Positions 2,298 to 53,677 of a stretch of DNA of 64,000 bases are shown one piece after another. The position numbers and the translations under genes are program-made. The notes beneath the pieces were generated by a model, which had not been told where the DNA came from, did no database searches, and saw nothing but the letters and a program-made list of their open reading frames with translations. This stretch comes from Gonapodya prolifera JEL478 (taxonomy: Eukaryota > Monoblepharomycota > Monoblepharidomycetes > Monoblepharidales > Gonapodyaceae), in contig KQ965792.1 in NCBI GenBank assembly GCA_001574975.1, forward strand, positions 8,919-72,918, given 5' to 3'. Position 1 is the first letter of the stretch. Every line of letters begins with the position of its first letter.

Positions 2298-5200
2298 ATG
2301 GGGGCCTGCTTTTCCAAGTCCGACGAGAAGCCCGCCCAAGCAGTCGCTCTTCCCATCAGGGCAGACATCTCGGCTGCTTCATCCTCCGTTGCTCCCGACA
2401 TCCTTCGCTACTATGAAATCTTCAAAAGAGCAGAGTTCCGAGCAAAAGTTGCCGCGAAACTGCCTTACCTGTGGGAGATCGACAAGGCGGACCTCACATT
2501 CGAATCCACAAAGATCGGGCAGGGTGGATTCGCCACGGTCATCAAGGGCGCTTGGCTTGAGCATATACCAGTTGCAGTCAAGATCGTGAACTTCAACCAC
2601 GACTATGATGAAAAGGTAACAATCGTTCTCGCTCTTTCAAGTCTCTCTGTCATTCAAGCTTTCGAATTTCAAACCCAGGCATTTGAACGCGAAGCTTCCC
2701 TCTGGTTTCGTTTCGCATCGCCGCACGTCCTCAACATGTACGGCATTGTAAAGTTTGATAGCGAACTGGCCTTTGTGTGTCCCATGCTGGAGAACGGAAG
2801 CGCAGATAAGTACCTGGATACCTTTCACGATGTGCAACAGCGTCGAGAAAAGGCGTTGGAACTCGTGAGTTTCTGGCCAAATTGATCAATCTCTCTTCAC
2901 AATGAGCTGATGAAAGTGCACTGCAGCTTTTGGATTTTGCTCGAGGTATCAAATACTTACACGACCATGGCGTGAGCCACGCTGACATCAAGCCACCAAA
3001 CCTCCTCGTGGATAAGAACGGCCAAGGCGTTGTCGCGGACTTTGGAGTGTGTAAGGTTCACGGTGTCCCTGGGCCTGGCGTTTCTGCTCAGGAGAGCGGT
3101 GATCCTGATGATCCCTTGGCTGACGTCGACGAAAAGCAGACTGGGTCTCGCGCAGGCACCGCTCGTTACATGTCGCCAGAGCGGCTTCGCGGGAAAGGCA
3201 CAACAGAGAAGGATGATGTCTGGGCATTTGCGCTGAACATTTTTGAGGTATGTGGAACATGTTCGTTGAGGCTCTGGTCGTGGTGAAGTAATGTTGCACC
3301 CGCCGGGATGCCTGCCCCTGAAAGCTCTGGACAGGCACAAATGCTTTTGACAAGCTCGCCAAAGAGCAGAGAACCTCCAAGAAGATGCTCTTGCTGGAGC
3401 TTATCAGCTCAGAAGAGTACCAATTCCGCCCCAACTTGCCAAAGGACGCCAACATGCCTGACGAGTTGAAACAACTCATGGAGCAGTGCTGGAACCAGCA
3501 TCCAGACCAACGCCCCACCTTTGCCGAGATTGTTCAGAAACTGGAGAGCATTTGGTGGGTGCGTTTGTGTTGCTCGATCTTGGTTTACTGGCTCTCGAAC
3601 AAGTGAACCCCTGTTGGCTGTCACTACAGTCCACCACGACCCGCAACTCAGGAAACCATCGGGCTGGGCAAGGAATTCAGCGACCAACCACTTTTCCTCC
3701 GCGCCTCAATCTGCTGCCACGAGCAAAATTTTTCAAAGGCCTTCCAACTGTACAAGCGTGCAGCCGAGGCAGGTTATGCTCCGGCCCAGGTTGAGCTTGC
3801 GTTCTTCTACGCCCACGGGATTGGTGTTCCCTCCAAGGATCTGGAACAGGCCGTGCGTTGGTACCTCAAGGCCGCCAAACAGGGCAACAATCGGGCACAG
3901 TTTAAACTTGGGCTGCATCTTTATTATGGGGAAGGGCTGATGCGGCAAGATCCTGTCGCTGGGGAAAAGTGGCTGAGAAAGGCAGCCGAACAGGGCGTCA
4001 AGGAGGCACAGGTCCTTCTTGGTGGGATCTACCATCTTGGGCAGTTTGTAGAAAAGGACAATGCCGAGGCTGCGATGTGGTGGAGAAAGGCCGCTGAACA
4101 GGGCGTCGCAGATGCCCAGTACCTGCTTGCGTTCTGCTTACATAACGGGACCGGTTTGGAAAAAGACGAACAAGAGGCTGTGGTGTGGTGGAGAAAGGCT
4201 GCTGAACAGGGCAACAACGAAGCACAATTTTCTCTTGGTGTACACTACGCAGAGAAGTTGGGTGCAGAGACATATGAGCAAGAGGCTGCACTGTGGTGGC
4301 AAAAGGCTGCGAAAAAGGGCAACGCAAAAGCACAGTTCAACCTTGGTGTGTTATACCATGATGGGAGAGGTGGTGTGGACGCAAATAAACAGGAGGCAAT
4401 GCTGTGGTGGAGAAAAGCTGCTGATCAGGGCATGGCAGAAGCGCAGTTTCAGCTTGGAAATTGCTACAGAATTGACGGAGGTAACATACAGTTCATTGAC
4501 ACAGCTGGTGTGATTTGGTGGCAAAAAGCCGCTGTACAGGGTCATGCAGAAGCGCAGTACGAGCTTGCTGTCTGCCTTCTGGGTGGTATTGGAATGGACA
4601 TGAACAAAACTGCGGCTGTAAGGTGGTTTCAAAAGGCTGCTAACCAGGGTGTCATGAAAGCGCAATTAGAACTCGCTGGATGCTACGCCAACGGTGTGGG
4701 TGTGAGAGAGGACGAGAGAGTGGCTGTTATGTGGTGGAGAAAGGCAGCGGAACAGGGAAGCGCGACTGCGCAGCGAATGCTGGGTGCATGCTATGCTGAA
4801 GGGCATGGTGTGAGAATTGACTTGCAAGAGGCTGCAATGTGGTATAAAAAGGCCGCAGAGCAGGGCATTGCGAGAGCACAGTACATCTTCGGCAACTATT
4901 GTTTTCAGGGGACGGGCGTGGACAAAAACAACCAAGAGGCCTTGAATTGGTGGAGAAAAGCTGCCAACCAGGACAATGCAGAAGCTCAGCACAACATTGG
5001 AGTCTACTACAGTCAGGGTCTAGGTGGGACAGAGGACGTAAATGAGGCTGTCCTCTGGTGGAGAAAAGCCGCAGAGAATGGTAACGCGACCTCACAGTAT
5101 CAGCTCGGTATGTGCTACTCTGCTGGACGGGGGGTGGCGGAAAGCGATGAAGAGGCCGCTGTGTGGTGGAAGAAGGCCGCAAGTCAGGGGCATGCGGATG

Positions 5201-5343
5201 CAGAGTATTTGCTCGGCTGCAGCTATCTTCGTGGGACGGGTGTGGACGAAAATCCTCAAGAGGGTGTGAGTTGGTTGCGCAAGGCGGCAAAACAGGGCCA
5301 AGCAGAAGCGGTCTCCCTTTTATCCAGCCTGGAGGAAGAATGA
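2298..5343 (+). CDS. TKL-like protein kinase fused to a Sel1-repeat domain
   Basis: Five exons close in phase: 2298-2615, 2679-2864, 2927-3247, 3325-3554 and 3630-5343, giving 922 residues. The start reads MGACFSKS, a good N-myristoylation signal (Gly2, Ser6) with Cys4 available for palmitoylation, so membrane anchoring is likely. The kinase domain spans about residues 70-345. Its glycine loop is IGQGGFATV (73-81) and the ATP-binding Lys is K95 in PVAVK. The catalytic loop is HADIKPPN (D188), where Ala replaces the Arg of HRD. DFG (D206), GTARYMSPE and the C-lobe CWNQHPDQRPTF are also present. From about residue 390 to the end run some 15 Sel1 units of about 36 residues with the hallmark WRKAAEQG. 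All key catalytic Asp and Lys residues are kept, so activity is expected. Sel1 arrays are scaffolds; targets are unknown. The first intron (63 nt) is a multiple of three and reads through. Confidence 0.93.
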
Positions 5344-5997: not shown

Positions 5998-6717
5998 CGT
6001 GACGATAAATGCATCAAACTTGGTCACGAGCAGACTGCCTGCCTGGTGAGTCGCGCCCCCGATGGTCCAATCCGATCGAAGTTCAAAGAGGATATACTGT
6101 CGATGGGCGTTGACCTCTGCATCATCTGGCTTAGCGAGCTTGACTAGGGCACCGTTTTGGTCACGGTAGTCAGTCTCATTCGTCCAGAAAGTCACTCCAC
6201 GCTGGACAAAGTCGCGCTCGAAGCCGGGCTTGAGGTCAGAGAAAACGGCAACTGAGACATCACCCTGTTCCCCGGCGTAAACGGTTTCAGCAGACGAAAG
6301 AGGGGTGCCACGACGCCACAGCTTGATCACTCGTGGGTAGCCAGAGTCGGTGAGACTCGAGGATTCTTCGCCAGGGAAGACAGTTCCAACGAAGAGCGAG
6401 TCTCCGCCGGGTCGCCAATATAAGCGGCTTTTTGCCTCAGGCAAAGTAAAGCCGTCCTCTTTAGGGGTAATGAAGCGCTTCCGAATGACGTCGAATTTCC
6501 GGAGGACATTCGCGTCAGCACCGCCTCGGCTGAGATACACAAGGGCACGTTCATTGGCTGGGTCCAGAAAATGTGCTCCTGCCCACACCCAATTCTCGCC
6601 CTCGTTGCGGCCCAATTGGTCCAGGTCGAGGACTATGTCCCAGTTTGGCGCTTCCTTGCGGTACTCGTCGAGTGTGGTACGGCGCCACAATCCTCGCGGG
6701 TTTGTCGCATCCTTCAT
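5908..6717 (-). pseudogene. S9 (prolyl oligopeptidase family) peptidase fragment
   Basis: This 269-codon open frame matches the beta-propeller part of bacterial/fungal S9A-type peptidases. It begins MKDATNPRGLWRRTTLDEYR and continues NWVWAGAHFL, RALVYLSRGGADANVLRKFD, SRLYWRPGGDSLFVGT, SGYPRVIKLWRRG and QYILFELRSDW. Homology ends at LLVTKFDAFI (about 6005). The last 30 codons are unrelated and lie antisense to the neighbouring ankyrin relic. The N-terminal part of the propeller and the whole alpha/beta-hydrolase catalytic domain (Ser-Asp-His) are missing, so no peptidase activity is possible. The frame itself is undamaged, which suggests a recent rearrangement or continued expression of a truncated protein. 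Confidence 0.75.
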
Positions 6718-8513
6718 AGATTATAGTACAACTCGTTTTTGGAGGTTGCGTGTTTGGCAATGGCGGGGATTTTATCCTTGGAGTCTATGAAACAAAGTGT
6801 GCTCAATTCAAACATTCAATGATCTCGAGACAGAACGTCTGTCCACTGATTTATCAAAGCCAGCAAATCGTTCGAGTTCTTCCCGAATTTGAAGTATGGA
6901 GGCCTCCCGCGCGAGAGATTTCGTCAGACTGATGGTTGGCGAGACGATTTGGAGTGGTGGCGGCTCTTATCGGGCGAGAGACGTTGAAATCGAACCACAT
7001 AGTTGGAAGAATAAAATGAAGGTGAGCCATCTCACAGATACGGGTCAGCAAAAGCTTTGATGATGTACCCACGAGTTGTCTCTCTAAAAATGACCAGGTT
7101 CCGTCGTGCTTTTCCTTGTGGAATCACCGTTTGGGGGTTTCACAGATTGTGCGGCTGCACAGCAAGCCAAAGGCGTCCAAAGCATCGCGCCCCAATGCCA
7201 CCGCGTTACTTGCGAATCCAACGAATCCAATGTGTTCCAGGACAGGCATGAGATTGTGACCAAGAAACCACCGGGATAGTCCCATAATGGTCTTGTGTCC
7301 GGGGTCGGGTGACCCACAATCTGGAAGTTCACATTTCCTCGGAAAACGAAGACGTAAAATGATGAAAACTCACCATTTTTGTTGCTCGCACCCCTGGTAT
7401 CTGACCGACTTTTGCGTGCAAGTCTTTACTGTGGGGTACCGTCGACGTTTAATCACCAGCAGAGGGCATAAAATCTCATCGTCATCACTGATTTGAGCTC
7501 TTTCTACCCAGCGCGGGTCCGTTTGTCGTTTATGAGCGCTGTGGCTCTTCACGTCGTGAAGTTTTCCAAACGGGAGGAGATAAATCAAAATCAAAAGTTG
7601 ACGTACATGTGGATCACACTGTAAGTTTGTGAACTGTCATCGCCGGAGGCCCCCACCTCTTTTTCCCTTTCTGCATCGCTCTACGAATGCTGGCGGTGAT
7701 GGCGGAGACGGACCTACCTCGCCCAGTCAACGGGACGGCTCACCCGTCTCACAGGAGCTGACGGGGCATCAAATGGATTCCCTGCTGTTCATTACTATCA
7801 GCTGTCAAAGGATGTACACGTGTCATTGTCACAGAGAATTTCCACGTCAGTGGAAAGCGATGTAGGTGTAGCGCATCATGATCGCTCGCATTTGAGACGT
7901 GAATAAAGGTAGTTGAAAGTGGGGAGAGCTGACGGGAGCGTGAGTGGCAACAGGAAATCGCTCTCTTCCAATAGGGCTTATAATTTCGCCGTGCAATGGC
8001 TGCGATAAGCTCCGAAAGGGAGTCCTGTCTGACAAAAGAGTACTCTGTCGTCAGGCTTCTCTCTTTTGGACCCTCAGCACTGCAGGATTCTGCACAGGGT
8101 CAGTCGTCCATTTCCACGGAACGCTGAACCAGAGGAGGAGCTGGAGGCAGGAGGAGTTGGACGCAGATAGGACAAAGCTATCCATTACAGACGCGGGTTT
8201 GGCAGTGTGGTCTTGATGCAAGTGCCGTGGCTGCGAGGGCACAGGTGGTCACGTGACCACGGGGTAGGGCCATACGCGATCCTCTGAGACCCGTGCGCGT
8301 CAATCGAGTTCTGACACTCTTGCGGTCGAGCGGAAAGTGCCGGATTTGCGCGTGGCTCGCTCCAAGAACATACGGGGATGGTAATAATGAGTATTCACAG
8401 ATGAGTGATGTACACATGTACCTTGTCAGGTAAACAGCCAGGGCGCAGGGGCGTGCGCAGGTTTGTTTTAAGCTTTATCAGGCCCGCATCATCGCAATTT
8501 TCCCTCGTCCGTC
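6718..8513. other. Gene-poor stretch
   Basis: Only short unconvincing frames are present on both strands, with no recognisable domain, tRNA or transposon signature. It may hold regulatory DNA for the flanking genes. Confidence 0.4.
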
Positions 8514-23607: not shown

Positions 23608-25889
23608 TCATGCCTTCCTCGCCTTCACCTTGATCGGCAGCCCACCCGTCCTCGTCACCTGCATGGTCACGAACTGTCTCACCCTCACATCCACCAGCGT
23701 GTCCCAACCTGGCGCGATATCGTACCTCCTGATGAGGTGTCCAAGCACAATGCGCATCTCGTTCATTGCAAAGTTGCGGCCGATGCAGTCACTGCGGGTG
23801 CGTTATTCGTTATTGAGACGATCACCGTTCGCGAACACACAGTGGGACGACACTCAGGAACACACCGAGATCCACTAGAAAAGGGCAAGAACAGGTCCCT
23901 ATTGACCAAACGTGGCCTTCCCCACTCAGCAGATAGTGACCCTTGTGCTTCTTTCGTGCCACCGCCGTGACCCGCAGATCCTTGTCCTGTGACACCCCAC
24001 ACCTCCTCGTTCCCCATTCCACTGTGGCCTTCGATCCATCGCTCGGGGAGGAACTCGTCGCCCCGTAGCCACACTGGGTCAAGCACCACGTAAAAACGCG
24101 GGTGGGAGTGATGACGTGGTTATCCAAACATTTTCACCTGTTTACCGTGTACGTCACGTCATGCAACGACATGAAACACTCACACTCGGAACACCGCTGC
24201 AACGCGTAAACCTGCACATTCAATCTCGTCCCTTTCGGAACCTGCAACGTCTTTTCCCCGCCGGCGTCGGCGTCCTTGTACCTCCACGTCGCATCCTCGG
24301 TGGTCTCCCTCGAAACAAACGGCACGACCGGCGCCAGCCGCAGCGTCTCCTTGATCCCCGCATCCAGCAACGCAACCGTCTTAAGCGTGGCGAGGTCCAG
24401 CGCCTTGGTGGTTCCCTCGGGGAACGCGCGGTCGAGTTCGGCGCGCAGTGCGGAGAGGTAGTCGGGTCGCTTGGCCAGAGCAAAGTACCAGAAGAAGGCC
24501 ATGGCGTTGGCCGACGTTTCCGACCCGGCCAGAAGGAACAAGTTGGCGTTGGTCGTCACGTCCAGCTCCAGCGCGCTGCCATCGCCGTCGCCTTTCTTTT
24601 CCTTGTCGAGCAGGAACTGCAATATGTCGGCCCTCCTCCCAGTCCCATCCGGCCCCCGAGACGCATCCCTTCTCTCCCGAATAATCGCGCCCATTATGCG
24701 TGACTGCACGGTCTGGGCGGACCCGAAGAAGGGCACAAACTGCACCGGAATGACGTGTAGGATGGGAAGCGTCATGCCCAGGGCGGACCATACCAGAAGC
24801 CGGTTGATGGCTGTGAGGAGGGGGTTGTTACCGGACTCCACCTGAGGTTGCGTGAGAGCGTCATGTTTGAGAAGGCCGTCGCAGAGGTTGTGCCGGAGTA
24901 GTTGGACACCACTTACCATATCGAAAGACCTTCCAAAAGCCGACTCGCCAATCACGTCCAAAGCTACATTCTACTGGGTCGAGAGTGCTTGTCGTGGGTG
25001 ACTCGGACCGTAAAGCAAGCTGCACGCGACGACAGTGATACTCACATGAACAAGCTTCACAACATCCTCGGTCGTCCACCCGTCGTCTCCAGCTCCTGCT
25101 CCTGCAGATTCATCCAGTCTCCGTTGCAGTGTGTTCCAGACCTTGATCATGAGCGGTTCGAGATTCTCGAGGTACTTTGTCGAGAAGGCCGGCGAGAGGA
25201 TACCCCGAGTGCGGCGGTGGAAGTCGCGGTCTAGCGTGGTTAGGAGGTTTTCGGACGGCTGATGGGACGAGGCGGCAGGCGGCAGGCGGAGGGTAGAAGT
25301 CGTGAGTGGGAAGGTGTGGGCGAAACACGGAGAGCAGCTTACTCCTTCAGAAAGACGAAACGACTTGTAGACCATGGCATCTTTTGGGAGGTCATCGGTG
25401 CGAAGAATCTGAGGATTACGTTCGTCGGAGGAGGGTGAGCGGGGATGAAACGGTTCGTAAAGTTTGGCAAAAGGTTCGAGGCGGACAACATGGGTTCAAG
25501 ACACCTTGCGTGCAAGCTGGGGATCGGCTACCGAGATGCGGTTGGGTCCGATCCTGACGCCGTAGAAGAAGGTTCATAGCGCATTCCAAACCGAATTGAA
25601 TTCATTTCCAGTACGATCACAGTAGCTCGAGGTCGCATTCCTCGTACCTCACGATCGGCCCGTGCTTCCGATGCAACTCATACGTGTAGAGAAAAAAGGA
25701 TCCCTTGATCGTGTACACGATGCCCGTGAGCGTGGGGAACGCCATCTTGAGCCAGCCATGGTGGTTGGATAAGCGAGCAAGTGGGGATGAAACGAGTGCG
25801 TCCCATAGGGCCACGAGGGTCGTGGTGACCGAGTAGAGGAGGAGCGCGGAGATGATGTTGGAGAGGGTCAGAGCGTCGTACAGGGGCAT
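23608..25889 (-). CDS. Cytochrome P450 monooxygenase
   Basis: The start MPLYDALTLSNIISALLLYS begins a membrane anchor. Exons then give HRKHGPIV joined to RIGPNRISVADPQLARK, the common fungal P450 N-domain text, and DFHRRTRGILSPAFSTKYL (C-helix). FGRSFDMV follows. The I-helix is NLFLLAGSETSANAMAFFWY (AGSET), the K-helix GIKETLRLAP (ExxR), and the meander contains FLPERWIEG. The heme loop is FSSGSR joined across an intron to DCIGRNFAMNEMR, with the axial Cys in DCIG. The C-terminus GGLPIKVKARKA ends at 23608. All hallmark residues are present. An unusually Gly/Ser-rich insert (TGQGSAGHGGGTKEAQ) lies between the meander and heme loop. It would use an endoplasmic-reticulum reductase partner. Substrate cannot be told. 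The neighbouring dioxygenase may act in the same route. Confidence 0.93.
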
Positions 25890-27407: not shown

Positions 27408-30400
27408 ATGGCGTCGACATCGACCGGTCACGCGGAACGCTCGTCGATCAAGACCGTGACGACAGCACTGGTGGCAATCCCACCGTCGCACTCATGGGCA
27501 CCGATTCAAGCGATTCGGATGGGGAGGGACAAATCGTATCGAAGATGGTGAATTCCCTTGTCCAAGTCACTGTCCTGCCTCATAAATAATCCATCCTCTG
27601 TTCACCGGATGACAAATTCCACTCCCCATCTGATGACATGTATCGATTCACTGGAATGGACCGGATTCCACTATCCCTTTTGCCAACCTATCACGGTCTA
27701 CCGCACGACGACAATTTTCCATATTCCATCAATGTCGATATGATGGACTGCAATGTCCGAATTCCACACTCGCCCTTGCCAATCTGAACTCTCCAGGCCT
27801 CCTCACGTCAATATTCTCTACCCTTTCGTCCCTCGCTCCGAGTTTGCGTCTGCAGCAACCACTGCACGAGACGCTCTCGCCCAATTCCAACCATTCACCG
27901 TCACACTCAACACCATTTCTTCGTTCCAGCACGCACGAACTGCAGTAAGTCATTCAAATCATTGCAAACCGAAAATAATCACGTTTCTCAACACCTCTGT
28001 GCCCACCCCACAAGACACTCTTCCTCGACTCTGCTCCGTCCGACCTCTCGTCAACACCGCTCAAGCAGATCAATTCTCTCCTCCTCCCCCACTTCCCGCA
28101 CTGCTCTGACCTCTCCTCACGTTCCGACTTTGGGTTCCGCCCGCACCTGAGTCTCGGGCAAGTCACCCTGCCAGGCACCCAGCGCAAGGCCCGCGAGACG
28201 GTCGAACGCGCTGAGGAAGAGTTCTCGCAGCTGTGGGAATCGGGTCACGCCAAGGGCAGCCTGGAATGGCTGGTGGATCGAGTCTACTTGATTGCACGGC
28301 ACGAGTCGGATAAGGCGGTGCCCTTTGAGATTGTGGAGGAGATCCTGCTGGGTAGACGTGATGCCGCAACGCTTCAAAAGTCAGTATGCTCGTGGAAGTA
28401 CCTGGGGGGATCCGGTACAGATGGGAGTGTGGAAGGGGAAGGGGCGACAGGCGCGTCATCTTCGAATGCCAAAGTGGTGGACCCCACGCACCAGTTAGGA
28501 CCACCCAGCGACGAAGACTCATCCTCGAGCGAACCTGACGCACGCCCCGCCTCGGGGTCTTCGCCGCGCGCCTTCCTCCCCTCCTTCACCTTCGATTCTT
28601 CCTCCGCGACCTGGTCCTCCTCTTCCCAGCAACACCATTCACCCGCCGCACCCACCTCTCTTCCGCCCACCGTGTCACTTCTCTCGTGGAATGTGCTCTA
28701 CTGCACGAACCCCCAAGCACAACTTCCGCCTGCTGACTTTGCCGACCCCGTCGAGACCGACCGCATGGCAAAGGTGGCCGAGGCCATCGCGGCGAGCGGG
28801 GCGGACGTGGTGGCGTTGCAGGAGGTGACGCAATGGGGAACGGGGTGAGTTTCGGACTGTTGGGCGTTGCTGTATCGCTTGTTGCTCAACACATGCCGTC
28901 GCCCGCAAATCCAGCATCTTGCTTTCGAATCCGGTCCTCCGCCAGTACCACTCCTCTCATCCTCCAACCGCGACACGCCCTCTCCGTGGCGGCCCGCTCG
29001 TTCTCTCGCGGCTCCCTTTCGTCCACTGCACCGTGGATATCGGCGGGAAGGAAGCCGTCGGAGCGAGATTTTCGGGGGAGGCGACTGGGGAAGGGAGCTC
29101 CTCGGACTCTGCGTTGGAAGTGTGGAGCGTGCATCTGACGAGTGATTTCAGAGGATTCATGGGGAAGAAGCGCATGGCGCAGGTATGTGTGTGATTTCCT
29201 TGACATCCGTGTCGACACCTCACAACTTCACCAACGTGTCAATCACATCAAACCAGCTTCACCACCTGACCTCCCACCACCTCACGCCTAACACTCCGCA
29301 CATCCTCGCCGGCGACTTCAACTCCGACGACCCCTCCCTATTTGCTCTCCTGCCCCGCTTCGTCGATTCCTGGCGCTCCAAACACAGCGCGTCCGACGGA
29401 GGATGGACGTTTGATCCCAGGGGAAACCCACTTGCTCGTGCAGTGGCCAGGGCTGTGGATATCCCCAGGCGGTACGACAGGGTGTTTTTGGAGGGCGGAG
29501 TTGGTTGGGGCGTGAAGTCATGCGAGGTATGTAGTTCAGGATGGTATTTTCTGAAAGACGCAATGAACTTATATGGTGTCTGGTTAGGTTGGATCTGCTG
29601 CAACGTCGGACGGTCTCTGGTTGTCGGACCACACACCCATCTTCACCACCTTTGACCGCAACGCTCCTGCGACTCCCATTGCCTCTACACCCTTTGATCC
29701 ATCGGATTCGACTTCGGTCCTCTCCCCTGAGACACTCGCTGCTTTCCTTACTGAAAACCTCCGGATCCCTCCCACCGATGATACCCGGCACGCCGCTGCG
29801 CTGGACGCCGTGCGCCGGCTGGTCAATACGGCACTGTATCCTGCCGAATCCCAAGCTTGGGCTGTCGGTTCCTTTGCCATGGGCGTGCACTCGCCGGATT
29901 CGGACTTGGACGTCCTCGCGGCGTCGGGGGAGAGTGAAGACGCCTTCTGGGCGGGGATGCGAGTAGCAGTCGACCTTGGTGTTCCGGGAATTCAGGTTCT
30001 GAGGTTCGTGGGAGAAGGAGCGAGGGTGAGAGTGGTGACGGTGCTCTGCGAAGGGGTCAAGTGCGACGTGAGCTACGTTTGTGCGGCGGAAGGGGTTATT
30101 CAAACGTGAGTTGTTGTTTTTGTAAGAGGTCACACTGGGTGTTTCATTCATCGTCTTTCGCGTTGTTCAGCTTGGATTCCGCCGTGGCCTCGTCAGAATC
30201 GAGTTCGGACGATCTCACCCCTCTCACAGTCCCCAAAATCCCAGATCATCTGAGCACTTCGGCAATCACCGCGCTTACAGACGCCCTCGTCCTACCCCGT
30301 CTCTTTCCGCGAGAGTCATCTTCGTTATTCCCCAACTTGGTCCGTTTGATCAAGTTCTGGGCTGCCCGTCGCGGCGTTTATTCTGCCCGACTTGGTTTCC

Positions 30401-31515
30401 CAGGCGGATCCGCAGTGGCGGTGATGGTAGCTGCGTGGCTCCGCACTGGCGGTGACCCGTCGGACCTGGGGGGCTTTTTCCGCAAGTACGCGTCGTGGGA
30501 CTATCTTGCTCGAGCCATCGCGATTCAGGAAGGCTCGGGCCGGACAGGAACTGGTAGCGGTAGGGACGCAGCCAACGGAGTTTCTATATCCAAGGACAAC
30601 CCTCCCTTGCAAGTGCGGACGCCCACCCCCCCTCATGTCAATCTGGTACGCAACTCGACCGTGCATACACTGCGGGTTCTGCAGGAGGAGCTGGCTCGCG
30701 CAGAGAGGATCCTATCCCCTCGCGTTGTCTCGGACGGGTCTTGGGTGGAGGTGCTGGATGCTTTGTGCGAGGATGGCACAACGGGATTCTTGAGGAGATT
30801 CGACGCGTTTGTTAGGATTCGCTTCGGGCTCCGGCGTGGAGGAAATAGCAAGCGGGCAGGATCAGCGGCAGTCAAGGAGGGGTCATCCGACGGGGCTCAG
30901 GAGACTCGATCAATTGAGGACATTGCGGCGTTCGTCGAAGCGAAACTTGTTGGCTTGTGTCTGGCGCTTCCAGTGGGTTCGTGGGCTCGGCCCTGGCCTG
31001 AACGGTTTGAAGGCGGAAAGACGCTCTTGGTGGGCATTGAGGGTGGCCCCTCAGCGGCAGTGGCAGAACCTCTTGCACGTTGGCTCAAGGCAGAAGTGAA
31101 AACTGCCGATGGGTTCACTTCTTCTTGGGGAGATGTTGAGGCGGTTGTTGTTTCGAAGACTGACCCATCGATGTCGTGGATATCGGACCTTTTGGGGGAC
31201 GCGCCAGCTCCTGTGACTAGCAAGGGAAAAGTTGGTGACGGAGAACGAGGGAAGGTCAAGGGTCGCCTTCGACCCGCCGACGAGATATTCAACAGGATTC
31301 TGTGGGATCCCTCGCTGGCTCCTCTTTCGAGCTGGACGATTGGTTATGAGGACCGCTTCGCTGGGGTACAAGAGAAACTCGTTTCGGAGTTTTCCAGGGA
31401 GGCGACGGACGAGACCTTCATACCAATGCATCGAGTGCGGTACTTCAAGCGCAATGGACAGATTGTGTGGGACCGGGCGTTGAGGATTGACAAAACGGGC
31501 GAGAAGGATATGTAG
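27408..31515 (+). CDS. Multidomain RNA-end processing protein: 2H phosphoesterase, EEP, nucleotidyltransferase, MJ1316
   Basis: Seven exons close in phase: 27408-27547, 27797-27944, 28015-28844, 28915-29182, 29257-29526, 29588-30105 and 30171-31515 (1172 residues). Residues 15-240 are a 2H/LigT-like phosphoesterase with HVN (50-52) and HLS (140-142). A Ser-rich linker follows. Residues 315-575 are an endonuclease/exonuclease/phosphatase fold: LLSWNVLYC, ALQEV (catalytic Glu about 366), VHLTSD, GDFNSDD and SDHTPIF. Residues 620-1000 are a poly(A)-polymerase-like nucleotidyltransferase: VGSFAMG, SDLDVL (D658, D660), KCDVSY (D712), then IKFWAARRGVYS and GFPGGSAVAVMVAA. Residues 1094-1172 are an MJ1316/DUF504 domain (IFNRILWDPSL, FIPMHRVRYFKRNGQIVWD). 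Known members of these families trim or recognise 2',3'-cyclic-phosphate RNA ends and add nucleotides, so one chain could clean, trim and re-extend damaged RNA. This combined role is inferred. Confidence 0.92.
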
Positions 31516-48154: not shown

Positions 48155-50204
48155 ATGTCGCAAGCAAACTCGCCCGAAAAGCCTTCGGACTCGGGCTCGG
48201 AGGCGGAGAGTGAGACGGATTCGAAGCAGGGTGACGGGGTGGATGAGATGGGACCGGATTCTGACATGCAACTCCCCGGGGATCCACAACAGGACGCAGG
48301 ACCTGCGGCGGACACCCCTCTCCGGTGAGTTTGCAGCGATGGACGACGAGCCTTCGTTGGCGAGCCACCCGATGGGAGCTCCGACGAGGAATCGGGCTCT
48401 GAACACCAGGTCCCTTACGAATCATGCACTGAACTGTTTATTTTATCTTCCACGATTCTGGACTTTCTTGCCTTCCGCCTCTATGATTGATCAGTACTCG
48501 GTCCTCGTCTCCTGCCGCCGCCGGATTCGCCAAGACCAATGAAACTACACCGGGACTTCCACCATTCGCAGACCTCCCCCAGCTCCCACAGGACCCACAG
48601 GACCCCAGACGCCCGCATGATCCCTCGCAACAGTCCTTTGCGTCTGAATCATCGACTTCTCCTGCTCGTTTTCCGGTTCAAGAACCTCCGAGTCATACTT
48701 CGGGCTTTTCTCAACGTCCTCAATCCTTCAATCCTTCTCGACCACCAGCCGGAGCACCTGGATATCAGTACCCTTATCCTGGAAACGCATTCGACCAGAA
48801 TCCGTGGCAGCCTACGCAGTTTGGATATCAGTACCCACCAACTCATTCATATTATTACGAACAGCCTGCGCAACCACCTTACCCTCCAACTTACTATGGT
48901 GGAATGTACGACAGACCGGCACTTCCTCCCCCATCTATGTACAATCGATATGGCATGCCTCCACAGCCCTATCACAATCCTATGCCGCAGCCTTATTCTG
49001 GATGGCCCAATTACGGTGGACAAGTTCCTAATTCTGACTTCCACTATCATCAGACCACTGGTTATGAAAGACCGCCAGTGCAGTTTGGTCCTCAGCCGAC
49101 ATACAACTATCCAGCACCGCCTGCGCCGTTCCAACATAATCATCCTGGTACATCGTCCATGGGATCGCCGTCGTCTTCACATGATCACTCTGGCGCGATG
49201 CCGGGTGGCTCCTCCCATTCCCACGGTCTACAGGACCCTTATTCTCCACAGAGTGTTCATAGGCCTCCAACAGCGGAGGAGTTGGAGCACGATGAACGCA
49301 CAACACCACCGGGTCAAGTCGCTCGTGGTCGCCCGCTGCGGAATCCGAGTTCGACATCGATCCAGCCTTATGAATATCGCATGTCGACGAATGTTGCGGA
49401 GGCTGGAAAGCGGACCTTAAAAACAGGTGTAGTGTCGTTTGAGCGGGACGAACATGGGAGAAAAGTCTATCGCTGTGAGTGTGGAACGGTATCGCGAATA
49501 ATATCGCGACCATCGTGTGATTATGCTTTCTTTTGTCTTTTCCGTTCTTCCTCAGGTGACTTCCCTGGATGCGACCGCAACCCCTTCAACACATCTGGAC
49601 ACCTTTCTCGACATCGCCGTGGGCATTTGGGCATTCGGCCATATGTTTGTCCCATACCTGACTGTGGAGCAACATTTACAAGAATCGATAACATGCGGAG
49701 GTACGTGTCGTTCACCAATCACAGTGGATTCCTAATTAATAGAGCTTTGCCCAAAGTCACGCCACAACCCATGCGCGGCGTCTTGGTATTCCTGTACCCC
49801 CAGACCTTCCGAGGAACTACACCCCTCGTGGCTCATCTCCACAGATGGGTAGAGGCCGCATGATACCTCCGTACACCCCTGGAGTGCGCATTGCGCCGCC
49901 CGAGTCGGATCTTATCCAGAGATCTTCGTCTCTCAACTCTCTGGATGCGGAGATTAGCCCCACAACTTCACCGCAGGAGTCAACGTCTGGTATTCCACGC
50001 TCAGTCACGGCACCGGCGGATTTACCCTCGACCTCAGTGAACAGTCAAAGGAACAGTCGAGCAAACATTCGAGGGGATCCTCGAGGGAGCAGTCGAGTGA
50101 ACAGGAGAGGCGCGCGTAGGACGTCGGGTAGAGTTAAGAGGACGGTGATTCCAACACCGGAAGATGGATTCGAGTCGGAGGACACCGACGAAGGGTCAGA
50201 ATGA
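48155..50204 (+). CDS. C2H2 zinc-finger transcription factor
   Basis: Four exons close in phase: 48155-48324, 48495-49474, 49556-49700 and 49757-50204 (580 residues). The N-terminus is acidic (MSQANSPEKPSDSGSEAESE). A long Pro/Tyr/Gln-rich part follows (GYQYPYPGNAFDQNPWQPTQ), typical of activation or low-complexity regions. Two adjacent fingers are rebuilt by splicing. Finger 1 is CDFPGCDRNPFNTSGHLSRH with RRGH, one residue longer than the C-X4-C-X12-H norm. Finger 2 is CPIPDCGATFTRIDNMRSHA with TTH, the regular C-X4-C-X12-H-X3-H. They are joined by LGIRPYV, a TGEKPY-like linker. A basic, Arg-rich tail (RANIRGDPRGSSRVNRRGAR) precedes an acidic end. It should bind DNA in the nucleus; targets are unknown. 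Both fingers are interrupted by introns. Confidence 0.92.
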
Positions 50205-51626: not shown

Positions 51627-52288
51627 TTTTGAACAGCACGAAAGGCCTTTTCATTAAAAATTTTGTTTCCACTCTCTTCATTTGGAGCGTATTTGCAATT
51701 TAACGCAAGGCAGCTCATATTGCGAGCACTCGTAAATACATCGTTCACCCTGTTGTACGCTTCGGTTGGGGGGGGGGGGGGGGGGGACAGACTGATTGTA
51801 GTTAATCGGGCACGTGGTCTTGGTGGATCAGGCGATGCTTGGGCTATTTTGCGTCCACATGATGAAGAAAGTCAGCAAGAATGACCCGGGATCACCACGA
51901 AGGGCTTCGCGACCCAAGATACGAGATAGCGGGTGAAGGACTGGGTGACTCCGTCATCCATCACCATACAGGCATGGTGCAAGACCCGCACCCACTCCGG
52001 TAACGAATTTGTGCTATTAGTCAGCGTCTCAGTCTATTACAGTCAAGACTTTACAGTTGCGTTTTCAAAGACTCTGCGTGGACTTTATATTTACGCGCCA
52101 AGGAAATTCATCCTTGTCACACGTGAATGGAGGCCCGCAAACAAATTCTGAAATTCGGTTGTTACAGATCAGATTTTTCCGTGAAAGATGCTCGGCTTCC
52201 CACTCCGGTCAAGTGGCCAGCCGCCTAAGCACATCCGTCCAAGTCTGCGCACTCAGGCCATGAGCGCCAACACTGACGATTTTGCAGG
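51627..52288. other. Spacer with a 19-base G run
   Basis: No gene is seen. An uninterrupted G run occupies 51768-51786. It could be a real mononucleotide tract or an assembly weak point, and its length may be inaccurate. Confidence 0.5.
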
Positions 52289-53677
52289 ATGCTTCGAGTG
52301 TTGCATCTCCGTCGAAAGCCATTTCCCCTCCTGCGTCTTCCCCCAGAACTAATCTCCCGCATCGGACATTTCTGCCACCTCCGTCTGGCGTTTCCGTCCG
52401 CCGCACTCACGAAACAACTCTACTGCGTGTTTTCCGACCCGCGCGCGATTTCTGCGAGGGCCATGCGGAGATTCGCGACGTTTGAACGGGCGCTGTACGA
52501 GGAATCGCATTTTGGCAATGTCGCTGTGTTGGAATGTCTGTTCCGACTCGCAGACGGCACCAAGGAATCCGACGTAGCCTACAGAGCAGACATTCTCTCG
52601 CTCTGTCTCACTGTCTCGTGCCGGCACAATCACGCGGCCGCCGCTCATCTCTTCCTGCACAACGGGGCACACATCGACGGCGCAAGCGAGGGCTCACTGT
52701 GCGCAGCACTCTCGGGCGGTCACATCACACTAGCAAAGAATCTTCTTTCCTTGGGCGCATCCGTGCAGGGCCGCATAGGAACTGTCGACGCACGTGTCCT
52801 GCCTCCTGCGGCAGAGACGGGAAACTTGGAGATCGTTCAGCTGGTCCTCGCAAAGGCCAACGGAGGTCCACACTGGGGAATTGACGATGCACTAGTTGTT
52901 GCCGTGCGCGCCGGGTTCCTCCCCATCGTATCCGCACTCCTTTCCCATGGCGCCAATATTGGGTTCGACTCCGGCCGCCCGCTTCTAGAAGCCGTGAGGA
53001 CACGCAACACCGCCATCCTCGCGCTCCTTCTCTCCCGCACGCCCTCGGACGCAGACGCCGGCCGCGCGCTCACCCTCGCTGCCCGTCTTGGGTTCAAGGA
53101 CGTGGTCGAAGTGCTCCTCGACCTTGGTTTGGACGTGAACGCAATGGGTGGCGTAACACTTATTGAGGCCGTGCGAGGCCGCGCGCACGTCGACGTGGTC
53201 AAGGTGTTGTTGGATAGGGGCGCTGATGTGACTTTGGTTGGAGTGAAGAACCTCGTGTGGACAGCGGGGTGGTACGAGGACAATGACGCCGTGCTTGAGA
53301 TTCTGCTCGAACATATTGGCGTTACGAAGGGCGGGGACTGGGGCGGGGGTAAGACTACGCGGATGGAAAGACGGAGGAGAGTGGAGCAAATGCTGAGACA
53401 GTTCGAGGAGCGGGAGCTAGCGGTCGTGGGAGGATCCGACGACAGCGGGGCCACTCTCACACTGGGTGAGTATCAGCGCCATGCCTTCCCGTGGGGCATA
53501 CCTGCAGACCTTGCCCCGACACAACTCGACACTGGGGCACCACACACCCGCCTTTCGGGGAATAGGACGGGGCGCAAGGTGGCGGCATGGTGGCGTAGAG
53601 TGAAGAGGAGGGTGGGACAGTGGTGTGGTGGCATGGAGAGGCGGGTCTTGCTGACGTTTGTGCCGAGGAAGTTGTAA
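52289..53677 (+). CDS. Intronless F-box-like/ankyrin-repeat protein
   Basis: One open frame of 462 codons. The start MLRVLHLRRKPFPLLR leads into an F-box-like LPPELISRIGHFCHLRLAFP. Seven or so ankyrin units then run from about residue 70 to 345 (GNVAVLECLFRLADG, HAAAAHLFLHNGAHIDGA, GHITLAKNLLSLGASVQG, GNLEIVQLVLAKANGG, GFLPIVSALLSHGANIGFD, GFKDVVEVLLDLGLDVNAMG, AHVDVVKVLLDRGADVTLVG). A basic tail ends LLTFVPRKL. F-box/ankyrin proteins probably recruit partners to SCF ligases. The relic at 5600-5997 has the same order of parts. Being intronless among intron-rich neighbours, it may stem from a retrocopy or belong to an intron-poor expanding family. Confidence 0.87.
   Translation: MLRVLHLRRKPFPLLRLPPELISRIGHFCHLRLAFPSAALTKQLYCVFSDPRAISARAMRRFATFERALYEESHFGNVAVLECLFRLADGTKESDVAYRADILSLCLTVSCRHNHAAAAHLFLHNGAHIDGASEGSLCAALSGGHITLAKNLLSLGASVQGRIGTVDARVLPPAAETGNLEIVQLVLAKANGGPHWGIDDALVVAVRAGFLPIVSALLSHGANIGFDSGRPLLEAVRTRNTAILALLLSRTPSDADAGRALTLAARLGFKDVVEVLLDLGLDVNAMGGVTLIEAVRGRAHVDVVKVLLDRGADVTLVGVKNLVWTAGWYEDNDAVLEILLEHIGVTKGGDWGGGKTTRMERRRRVEQMLRQFEERELAVVGGSDDSGATLTLGEYQRHAFPWGIPADLAPTQLDTGAPHTRLSGNRTGRKVAAWWRRVKRRVGQWCGGMERRVLLTFVPRKL

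What the first reader, a model, noticed from the sequence alone, without database searches (positions are those of the whole stretch)
27408..31515. Four RNA-end enzymes and binders in a single polypeptide
One phase-closed seven-exon frame carries a 2H phosphoesterase (HVN/HLS), an EEP nuclease/phosphatase (ALQEV, GDFN, SDH), a poly(A)-polymerase-like nucleotidyltransferase (GS...SDLD, D712) and an MJ1316/DUF504 domain. All catalytic residues that can be seen are present. These families act on damaged or cyclic-phosphate RNA ends, so the protein could form a self-contained trim-and-extend repair machine. Comparative genomics has already linked MJ1316 to RNA cyclic-end recognition, so the domain linkage may be known; the exact four-part fungal protein looks uncharacterised experimentally.
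Basis: partly seen in the sequence, partly recalled or inferred. Interest (0 to 1): 0.85.

Follow-up and report, generated by a model that had tools for sequence, protein, structure and literature searches.

The report
Four-domain RNA end-repair enzyme
A water fungus makes one protein that carries the tools to recognise, clean and extend damaged RNA ends, and bacteria carry the same four tools in a different order, usually beside the genes that seal broken RNA, so it is probably half of an RNA repair kit.

Summary
The seven-exon gene at 27408-31515 encodes one 1172-aa protein, identical to NCBI M427DRAFT_137544 of Gonapodya prolifera. It holds a 2H phosphoesterase, a TDP2-like EEP enzyme, a nuclear-type poly(A) polymerase and an MJ1316 domain, with active-site residues that nearly all homologues keep.

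The homologues change the reading. Of 61 found, 56 have all four parts: the named fungi and Chromera as 2H-EEP-PAP-MJ1316, the bacterial type as MJ1316-EEP-2H-PAP, one dinoflagellate as 2H-MJ1316-EEP-PAP. In 71 of 80 bacterial loci (14 of 16 genus-level groups, mostly Actinomycetota) an RNA ligase and a kinase lie directly upstream, nearly always within 30 nt or overlapping. The protein therefore looks like the 3'-end half of a ligase/kinase RNA repair system. "Self-contained" can hold for 3' ends only.

Whether Gonapodya encodes the ligase partner was not tested, because the genome server stayed unreachable. Decay tagging is the main rival. Linkage of MJ1316 to RNA repair is published (Burroughs & Aravind 2016, which I could not read), so I call this a new variant of a known kind. 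The most surprising point is a eukaryotic-type poly(A) polymerase in a bacterial RNA-repair operon.

The parts
27408..31515 (+). Whole gene: CDS join(27408..27547,27797..27944,28015..28844,28915..29182,29257..29526,29588..30105,30171..31515), 1172 aa
   Evidence: Phase-closed exons with GT-AG introns; 100% identity to database protein P0001
27480..28308 (+). 2H phosphoesterase domain, residues 25-194 (exons 1-3; introns included in the span); His50 and His140
   Evidence: Pfam PF13563 E 9.9e-30; both His in 60 of 60 homologues with the domain
28681..29632 (+). EEP phosphatase/nuclease domain, residues 319-567 (exons 3-6), TDP2-like
   Evidence: Pfam PF03372 E 4.3e-16; TDP2 by profile and by fold, 4gz2 E 3.8e-10; N322, E366, H446, D482, N484 in 61 of 61
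29723..31194 (+). Nuclear-type poly(A) polymerase, about residues 598-1066 (exons 6-7); D658, D660, D712
   Evidence: Profile match to PAP gamma 4lt6 E 3.8e-49; Foldseek 4lt6 E 7.7e-15, TM 0.70 by target length; D658 58/60, D660 57/60, D712 56/60. The outer borders are my estimate from the secondary structure of the model
30328..30753 (+). PAP_central domain, residues 778-919
   Evidence: Pfam PF04928 E 4.5e-12
31270..31476 (+). MJ1316 (DUF504) domain, residues 1092-1160
   Evidence: Pfam PF04457 E 4.1e-18, 3.1e-18 on the DNA; H1145, R1146, W1158, R1160 in 58 of 58 aligned homologues

Best explanation
The protein is the 3'-end half of an RNA repair system. MJ1316 recognises or docks a cleaved RNA end (inferred). 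The 2H domain opens a 2',3'-cyclic phosphate (family knowledge). The TDP2-like EEP domain removes the remaining phosphate or other block to give a 3'-OH (inferred). The poly(A) polymerase domain then adds nucleotides to that 3'-OH without a template, to restore lost residues or extend the end (inferred). In bacteria the gene directly upstream supplies the kinase and the RNA ligase that complete the job. In the fungus sealing would need a separate ligase, for example the fungal tRNA ligase (inferred, not tested). Shown here: domains, active-site residues, three orders of the same four parts, and the bacterial gene linkage. Substrate and chemistry are not shown.
For: All four domains are found and their catalytic residues are conserved. 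The same four parts occur in three orders: 38 of 61 MJ1316-EEP-2H-PAP, 17 of 61 2H-EEP-PAP-MJ1316, 1 of 61 2H-MJ1316-EEP-PAP, so the set is kept while its order is not. An RNA ligase and a kinase (PF09414 and PF13671 in the 3 fused proteins scanned) lie directly upstream in 71 of 80 bacterial loci, in 14 of 16 genus-level groups. In 76 loci where the kinase could be placed, its stop overlaps the next gene in 39 and lies 0-30 nt before it in 34 (measured to the position that aligns with the start of the query). Argonema (cyanobacterium) has a ligase gene, an HD+kinase gene and the four-domain gene in a row. In one homologue a primase-polymerase stands in place of PAP (P0060), so the slot appears to be 'a polymerase'. 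A published scheme has RNA ligases working with kinases and phosphoesterases, 2H enzymes probably clearing cyclic ends, and template-independent nucleotidyltransferases restoring missing bases (PMC7824862, passages).
Against: No biochemical or expression evidence. The ligase partner could not be sought in Gonapodya: the own-genome search did not complete. In the window no ligase or kinase match was better than E 0.49 and 0.88. 4 of 80 bacterial loci show no ligase-kinase beside the gene, including all 3 Micromonosporaceae. One Streptomyces clade (9 loci) lacks the 2H domain and one locus (L072) has only MJ1316-EEP after its ligase-kinase, so not every part is indispensable. The operon evidence comes from proteins with another domain order, and 58 of the 80 loci are Streptomycetaceae, so counts are not independent. 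In the two alveolate proteins the third PAP aspartate (D712) is not aligned to Asp, and Y795 is Asp in 26 of the 40 homologues outside the eukaryote set, so activity or nucleotide choice may differ.
Confidence: 0.6

Rival explanations
1. Decay tagging: the protein heals the 3' end of cleaved RNA and adds a tail so that the fragment is handed to the exosome or another exonuclease. Repair and ligation are not its purpose in fungi.
For: The polymerase is of the poly(A) type with its RNA-binding part, and tailing marks RNA for decay in several systems (general knowledge). No ligase was detected in the fungal window with the bacterial ligase queries; these could miss a distant or intron-split ligase.
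Against: In bacteria the gene is joined to an RNA ligase and kinase in 71 of 80 loci, which a decay factor does not need.
Confidence: 0.2
2. The EEP domain acts like TDP2: it removes proteins or peptides attached to RNA or DNA ends, and the other domains finish those ends.
For: TDP2 is the best-scoring EEP family among solved structures by sequence (E 3.3e-18 with the bacterial profile) and the only EEP family in the 50 fold matches listed.
Against: The company it keeps (2H, MJ1316, PAP, RNA ligase) points to RNA ends made by RNases, not to protein adducts. The EEP relative ANGEL2 hydrolyses RNA 3' phosphates (PMC9525292, abstract).
Confidence: 0.08
3. Small-molecule signalling: the polymerase makes 2'-5' or cyclic oligonucleotides and the 2H and EEP domains degrade them.
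For: Some 2H and EEP enzymes degrade 2-5A and some relatives of PAP make oligonucleotide signals (recalled). An entry named NucC/CdnC is a weak hit of the bacterial profile (E 2.9e-4).
Against: The same profile matches nuclear PAP at E 1.4e-55. No effector-like family recurs beside the gene in the neighbour clusters printed, and no PADLOC model matches 4 of 4 proteins tested.
Confidence: 0.05
4. The open frame is a wrong join of two or more separate genes.
For: No RNA-seq was available to show one transcript.
Against: Every exon junction is in phase. A protein of another Gonapodya species (98% covered), Hyaloraphidium, Chromera and several Ascomycota have the same four parts in the same order, and bacteria have them in single frames, for example 943 aa in L004 covering the whole query.
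Confidence: 0.02

Closest known systems
Actinobacterial 'poly(A) polymerase' / 'RNA repair domain-containing protein' (for example P0021 Streptomyces europaeiscabiei, P0011 Nonomuraea rubra)
   Same: The same four domains with conserved active sites
   Different: Order MJ1316-EEP-2H-PAP instead of 2H-EEP-PAP-MJ1316; usually directly behind a ligase-kinase gene; no introns
RNA repair systems with ATP-dependent RNA ligase, kinase, phosphoesterase and nucleotidyltransferase (Burroughs & Aravind 2016, not held; scheme taken from PMC7824862 passages), and T4 Pnkp/Rnl1
   Same: The bacterial gene pair supplies ligase, kinase, phosphoesterases and a nucleotidyltransferase
   Different: The nucleotidyltransferase is of nuclear PAP type and is fused to both phosphoesterases and MJ1316; T4 Pnkp/Rnl1 has no polymerase part (recalled)
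Nuclear poly(A) polymerases (PAP alpha/gamma, yeast PAP, Pla1)
   Same: Nearly the whole solved chains align
   Different: Fused to RNA-end healing domains; about 17% identity; also present in bacteria
TDP2
   Same: EEP fold and motifs
   Different: Fused to RNA-end enzymes; substrate unknown
LENG9 and other eukaryotic MJ1316 fusions (LENG9 recalled; that MJ1316 has diverse eukaryotic fusions to RNA repair domains is in PMC6514570 passages)
   Same: MJ1316 together with 2H, as recalled
   Different: No EEP and no polymerase, as recalled

Membership tests
2H phosphoesterase (PF13563) | Two H-x-[T/S] motifs | tested here: met
   Both catalytic His in 60 of 60; the second motif is HxS/T in 60 of 60; the first is HxN in 51 of 60, a variant of this family
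2H phosphoesterase (PF13563) | Cyclic phosphodiesterase activity on RNA ends | not testable with these tools
   Needs enzyme assays
EEP superfamily, TDP2-like | Asn, Glu, Asp-x-Asn, Ser-Asp-His active site | tested here: met
   N322, E366, D482, N484 in 61 of 61; D566 60/61; H567 60/61
EEP superfamily, TDP2-like | Closest to TDP2 among solved structures | tested here: met
   Best-scoring EEP family, and the only one in the 50 rows listed; no proof of substrate
Nuclear-type poly(A) polymerase | GS...DxD plus third Asp | tested here: met
   Met for the window protein; D658, D660, D712 in 58, 57 and 56 of 60 homologues. The two alveolate proteins P0039 and P0050 lack an Asp at the third place in this alignment
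Nuclear-type poly(A) polymerase | Central and C-terminal RNA-binding domains | tested here: met
   Profile match spans chain residues 19-500 of 4lt6; Foldseek 487 alignment columns against a chain of 462 residues
Nuclear-type poly(A) polymerase | ATP specificity and tailing activity | not testable with these tools
   Y795 is kept in 19 of 20 of the eukaryote set but only 5 of the other 40
MJ1316 (PF04457) | Profile match above the curated cut-off | tested here: met
   66.3 bits against 26.3
MJ1316 (PF04457) | Binding of RNA 2',3'-cyclic ends | not testable with these tools
   Stated in PMC6514570 (passages) with reference to earlier work; I saw no experiment
ATP-dependent RNA ligase repair system | Ligase and kinase genetically linked to the 3'-end enzymes | tested here: met
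   Met for the bacterial relatives, 71 of 80 loci; not for the window itself
ATP-dependent RNA ligase repair system | Ligase and kinase present somewhere in Gonapodya | not tested
   The genome search did not answer after (and later)
OAS/CD-NTase signalling systems | Best match to a signal-making enzyme, or a linked effector | tested here: not met
   Best match is nuclear PAP; no PADLOC match in 4 of 4 proteins

The most novel reading that the evidence does not exclude
A single conserved RNA-repair module, shared by bacteria, fungi and alveolates, uses a nuclear-type poly(A) polymerase to rebuild or extend healed RNA 3' ends before sealing. Nuclear-type poly(A) polymerases would then have a second, repair-related role outside mRNA tailing, and the bacterial operons would be the place to test it directly.
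Probability: 0.35. Interest if true: 0.75.

Novelty: new variant of a known kind. Interest (0 to 1): 0.55.

Why it matters
What template-independent nucleotide addition does in RNA repair is little tested (my judgement). Here a tailing polymerase is physically fused to the enzymes that would prepare its primer, and in tractable Streptomyces it is encoded in tight overlap with a sealing enzyme. A eukaryotic-type poly(A) polymerase in a bacterial operon is itself unexpected. If confirmed, the system gives a compact way to reconstitute whole RNA repair (heal, extend, phosphorylate, seal) from two proteins.

Tried and rejected
Wrong-join artefact: rejected by phase, identity to the database protein, and homologues in the same order. 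Defence-system membership: no PADLOC match for 4 of 4 proteins tested at E 0.01. NCBIfam, same 4 proteins: only matches far below the cut-offs. Viral copies: one scan with the bacterial alignment found a single 29%-identical EEP-only match (L087), not pursued. Ligase or kinase inside the window: no match better than E 0.49 and 0.88. Literature: the key paper (NAR 2016, gkw722) is not held. Searches for MJ1316 (2 papers, one of them read in passages, the other not opened), DUF504 (none), HD-Pnk (1 paper, not opened, title on G-quadruplexes) and combinations (titles and abstract starts seen) listed no experiment on this protein; the library lacks most subscription papers. What is said of LENG9, T4 and 2-5A enzymes is recalled.
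Full report
WHAT IS THERE. The gene at 27408-31515 has seven exons that join in frame into 1172 aa. The product is identical over its full length to the database protein M427DRAFT_137544 of Gonapodya prolifera JEL478, a monoblepharidomycete fungus. The contig lengths agree too (285,626 bases), so the window comes from that genome (47.6 Mb held). Pfam finds 2H, EEP, PAP_central and MJ1316 above their cut-offs; the small nucleotidyltransferase model scores just below its own. A profile of 18 proteins of the fungal order matches solved poly(A) polymerases over nearly their whole length (PAP gamma 4lt6, E 3.8e-49) and TDP2 weakly (E 3.6e-5). An AlphaFold model (18 sequences, mean pLDDT 69.9, pTM 0.45, so domain placement is not reliable) matches PAP gamma (E 7.7e-15, TM 0.70 by target length) and TDP2 (E 3.8e-10, TM 0.74).

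ACTIVE SITES. Two protein searches gave 61 distinct proteins, including the window's own. In domain-wise alignments the two 2H histidines are present in 60 of 60, five EEP residues in 61 of 61, the three PAP aspartates in 58, 57 and 56 of 60, and four MJ1316 residues (H1145, R1146, W1158, R1160) in 58 of 58 (one truncated MJ1316, P0061, was dropped before the count). Among the exceptions, P0042 has several changes and may be a poor gene call, and the two alveolate proteins have no Asp at the third PAP place in this alignment. The first 2H motif is HxN in 51 of 60 rather than HxT/S. Y795 of the polymerase is kept in 19 of 20 of what I grouped as eukaryotes (a few of them unnamed and placed there by domain order) but is Asp in 26 of the other 40.

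THREE ORDERS. With domain HMMs made here, 38 of 61 are MJ1316-EEP-2H-PAP, 17 are 2H-EEP-PAP-MJ1316, 1 (dinoflagellate Effrenium, P0039) is 2H-MJ1316-EEP-PAP, and 5 lack a part: P0042 and P0044 lack MJ1316, P0041 lacks 2H, P0061 has a cut MJ1316, P0060 lacks PAP. The named holders of the fungal order are Gonapodya, Hyaloraphidium, Ascomycota such as Fusarium, Colletotrichum and Podospora, and the alveolate Chromera. The named holders of the bacterial order are Actinomycetota apart from one alphaproteobacterial MAG. A FastTree of the four concatenated domains (57 proteins; P0042, P0046, P0060 and P0061 left out) puts the fungi together (support 0.65) beside Chromera, and Effrenium with the bacteria; it is midpoint-rooted and does not show the direction of transfer. 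In P0060, from a eukaryote transcript set, a primase-polymerase stands in place of PAP.

BACTERIAL OPERON. By domain tblastn, 70 of 80 have all four parts, 9 lack 2H and 1 has MJ1316-EEP only. The 9 form one clade (support 0.992) and keep the GS...DxD motif, so 2H was probably lost once while the rest persists. Directly upstream lies an RNA ligase plus P-loop kinase, one protein in the three actinobacterial cases scanned (PF09414 and PF13671). Both were found there in 71 of 80 loci; in 5 more only the kinase was found and the contig ends close by; in 4 neither was found (L021, L037, L042, L069). The 71 span 14 of 16 genus-level groups, one of them an unnamed Catenulisporales MAG. In the 76 loci where the kinase could be placed, 39 stops overlap the next gene, 34 lie 0-30 nt before it and 3 lie farther (measured to the position aligned with the start of the query, not to a verified start codon). 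In the reduced gene set, apart from the target, the ligase-kinase and one antisense group of 24 loci whose representative overlaps the operon, no other family recurred in more than 16 loci. In the cyanobacterium Argonema a ligase gene, an HD+kinase gene and the four-domain gene follow each other. The sample is dominated by Streptomycetaceae (58 of 80), so these counts are not independent.

A EUKARYOTIC-TYPE POLYMERASE IN BACTERIA. The bacterial-order profile matches nuclear PAPs at E 1.4e-55 and TDP2 at E 3.3e-18; among the 50 sequences listed none is named as a bacterial poly(A) polymerase or CCA-adding enzyme.

MECHANISM. Family knowledge and the operon suggest: MJ1316 recognises the end; 2H opens the cyclic phosphate; EEP clears it to 3'-OH; PAP adds nucleotides; kinase and ligase finish the break. 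A comparative genomics paper on jumbo phages states that ATP-grasp RNA ligases work with kinases and phosphoesterases, that 2H enzymes probably clear cyclic ends, and that template-independent nucleotidyltransferases restore missing bases (PMC7824862, passages). The EEP relative ANGEL2 hydrolyses RNA 3' phosphates (PMC9525292, abstract), and several bacterial and viral RLIG1 homologues seal tRNA halves with 5'-phosphate and 3'-OH (PMC11494293, passages). MJ1316 as a reader of 2',3'-cyclic ends with diverse eukaryotic fusions to repair domains is stated in PMC6514570 (passages), citing Burroughs & Aravind 2016, which is not held. Steps shown here are the parts, their residues and the gene linkage; the chemistry and the order of action are inferred.

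LIMITS. Whether Gonapodya has the ligase partner is untested, because the genome server did not answer. No RNA-seq. No enzyme data. The architecture and operon may already be in the 2016 paper, so I claim no priority for them.

Noticed in passing
L084 (own genome C66, about 224257-227418), minus strand, between about 1840 and 898: A second 2H copy: pieces 67% (33 aa) and 46% (288 aa, with an in-frame intron and read past the stop) identical to the window's 2H region, apparently with the same two intron positions, ending in a stop after the 2H part; no EEP match follows within the held stretch.
   Followed up: partly
L003 about 6302-6731 (own genome C127): A free-standing MJ1316 gene, 49.5% identical over 99 aligned positions (intron included) to the window's MJ1316 domain, so both terminal domains of the four-part protein also seem to exist alone in this genome.
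   Followed up: partly
L071, L073-L079, L081: One Streptomyces clade of nine loci lacks the 2H domain but keeps ligase-kinase, EEP and PAP, which suggests that EEP alone can prepare the 3' end there.
   Followed up: partly
P0060 (eukaryote transcript): MJ1316-EEP-2H followed by a primase-polymerase (PF18188/PF23162) in place of PAP, with a P-loop-like stretch inside the EEP region seen by eye.
   Followed up: no
L007, L008, L068, L076 and four more of 80 loci: 8 loci hold both S10-cluster ribosomal genes and tuf; in the four printed these lie on either side of the repair operon (tuf seen in 14 loci, S3 or L3 in 17).
   Followed up: no
window 3607-5340 (+), 24134-24967 (-), 52277-53674 (+), 48487-49860 (+): Other genes in the window: Sel1 repeats, cytochrome P450, ankyrin repeats, a C2H2 zinc-finger trace; six further frames tested had no Pfam match (10 frames).
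   Followed up: no
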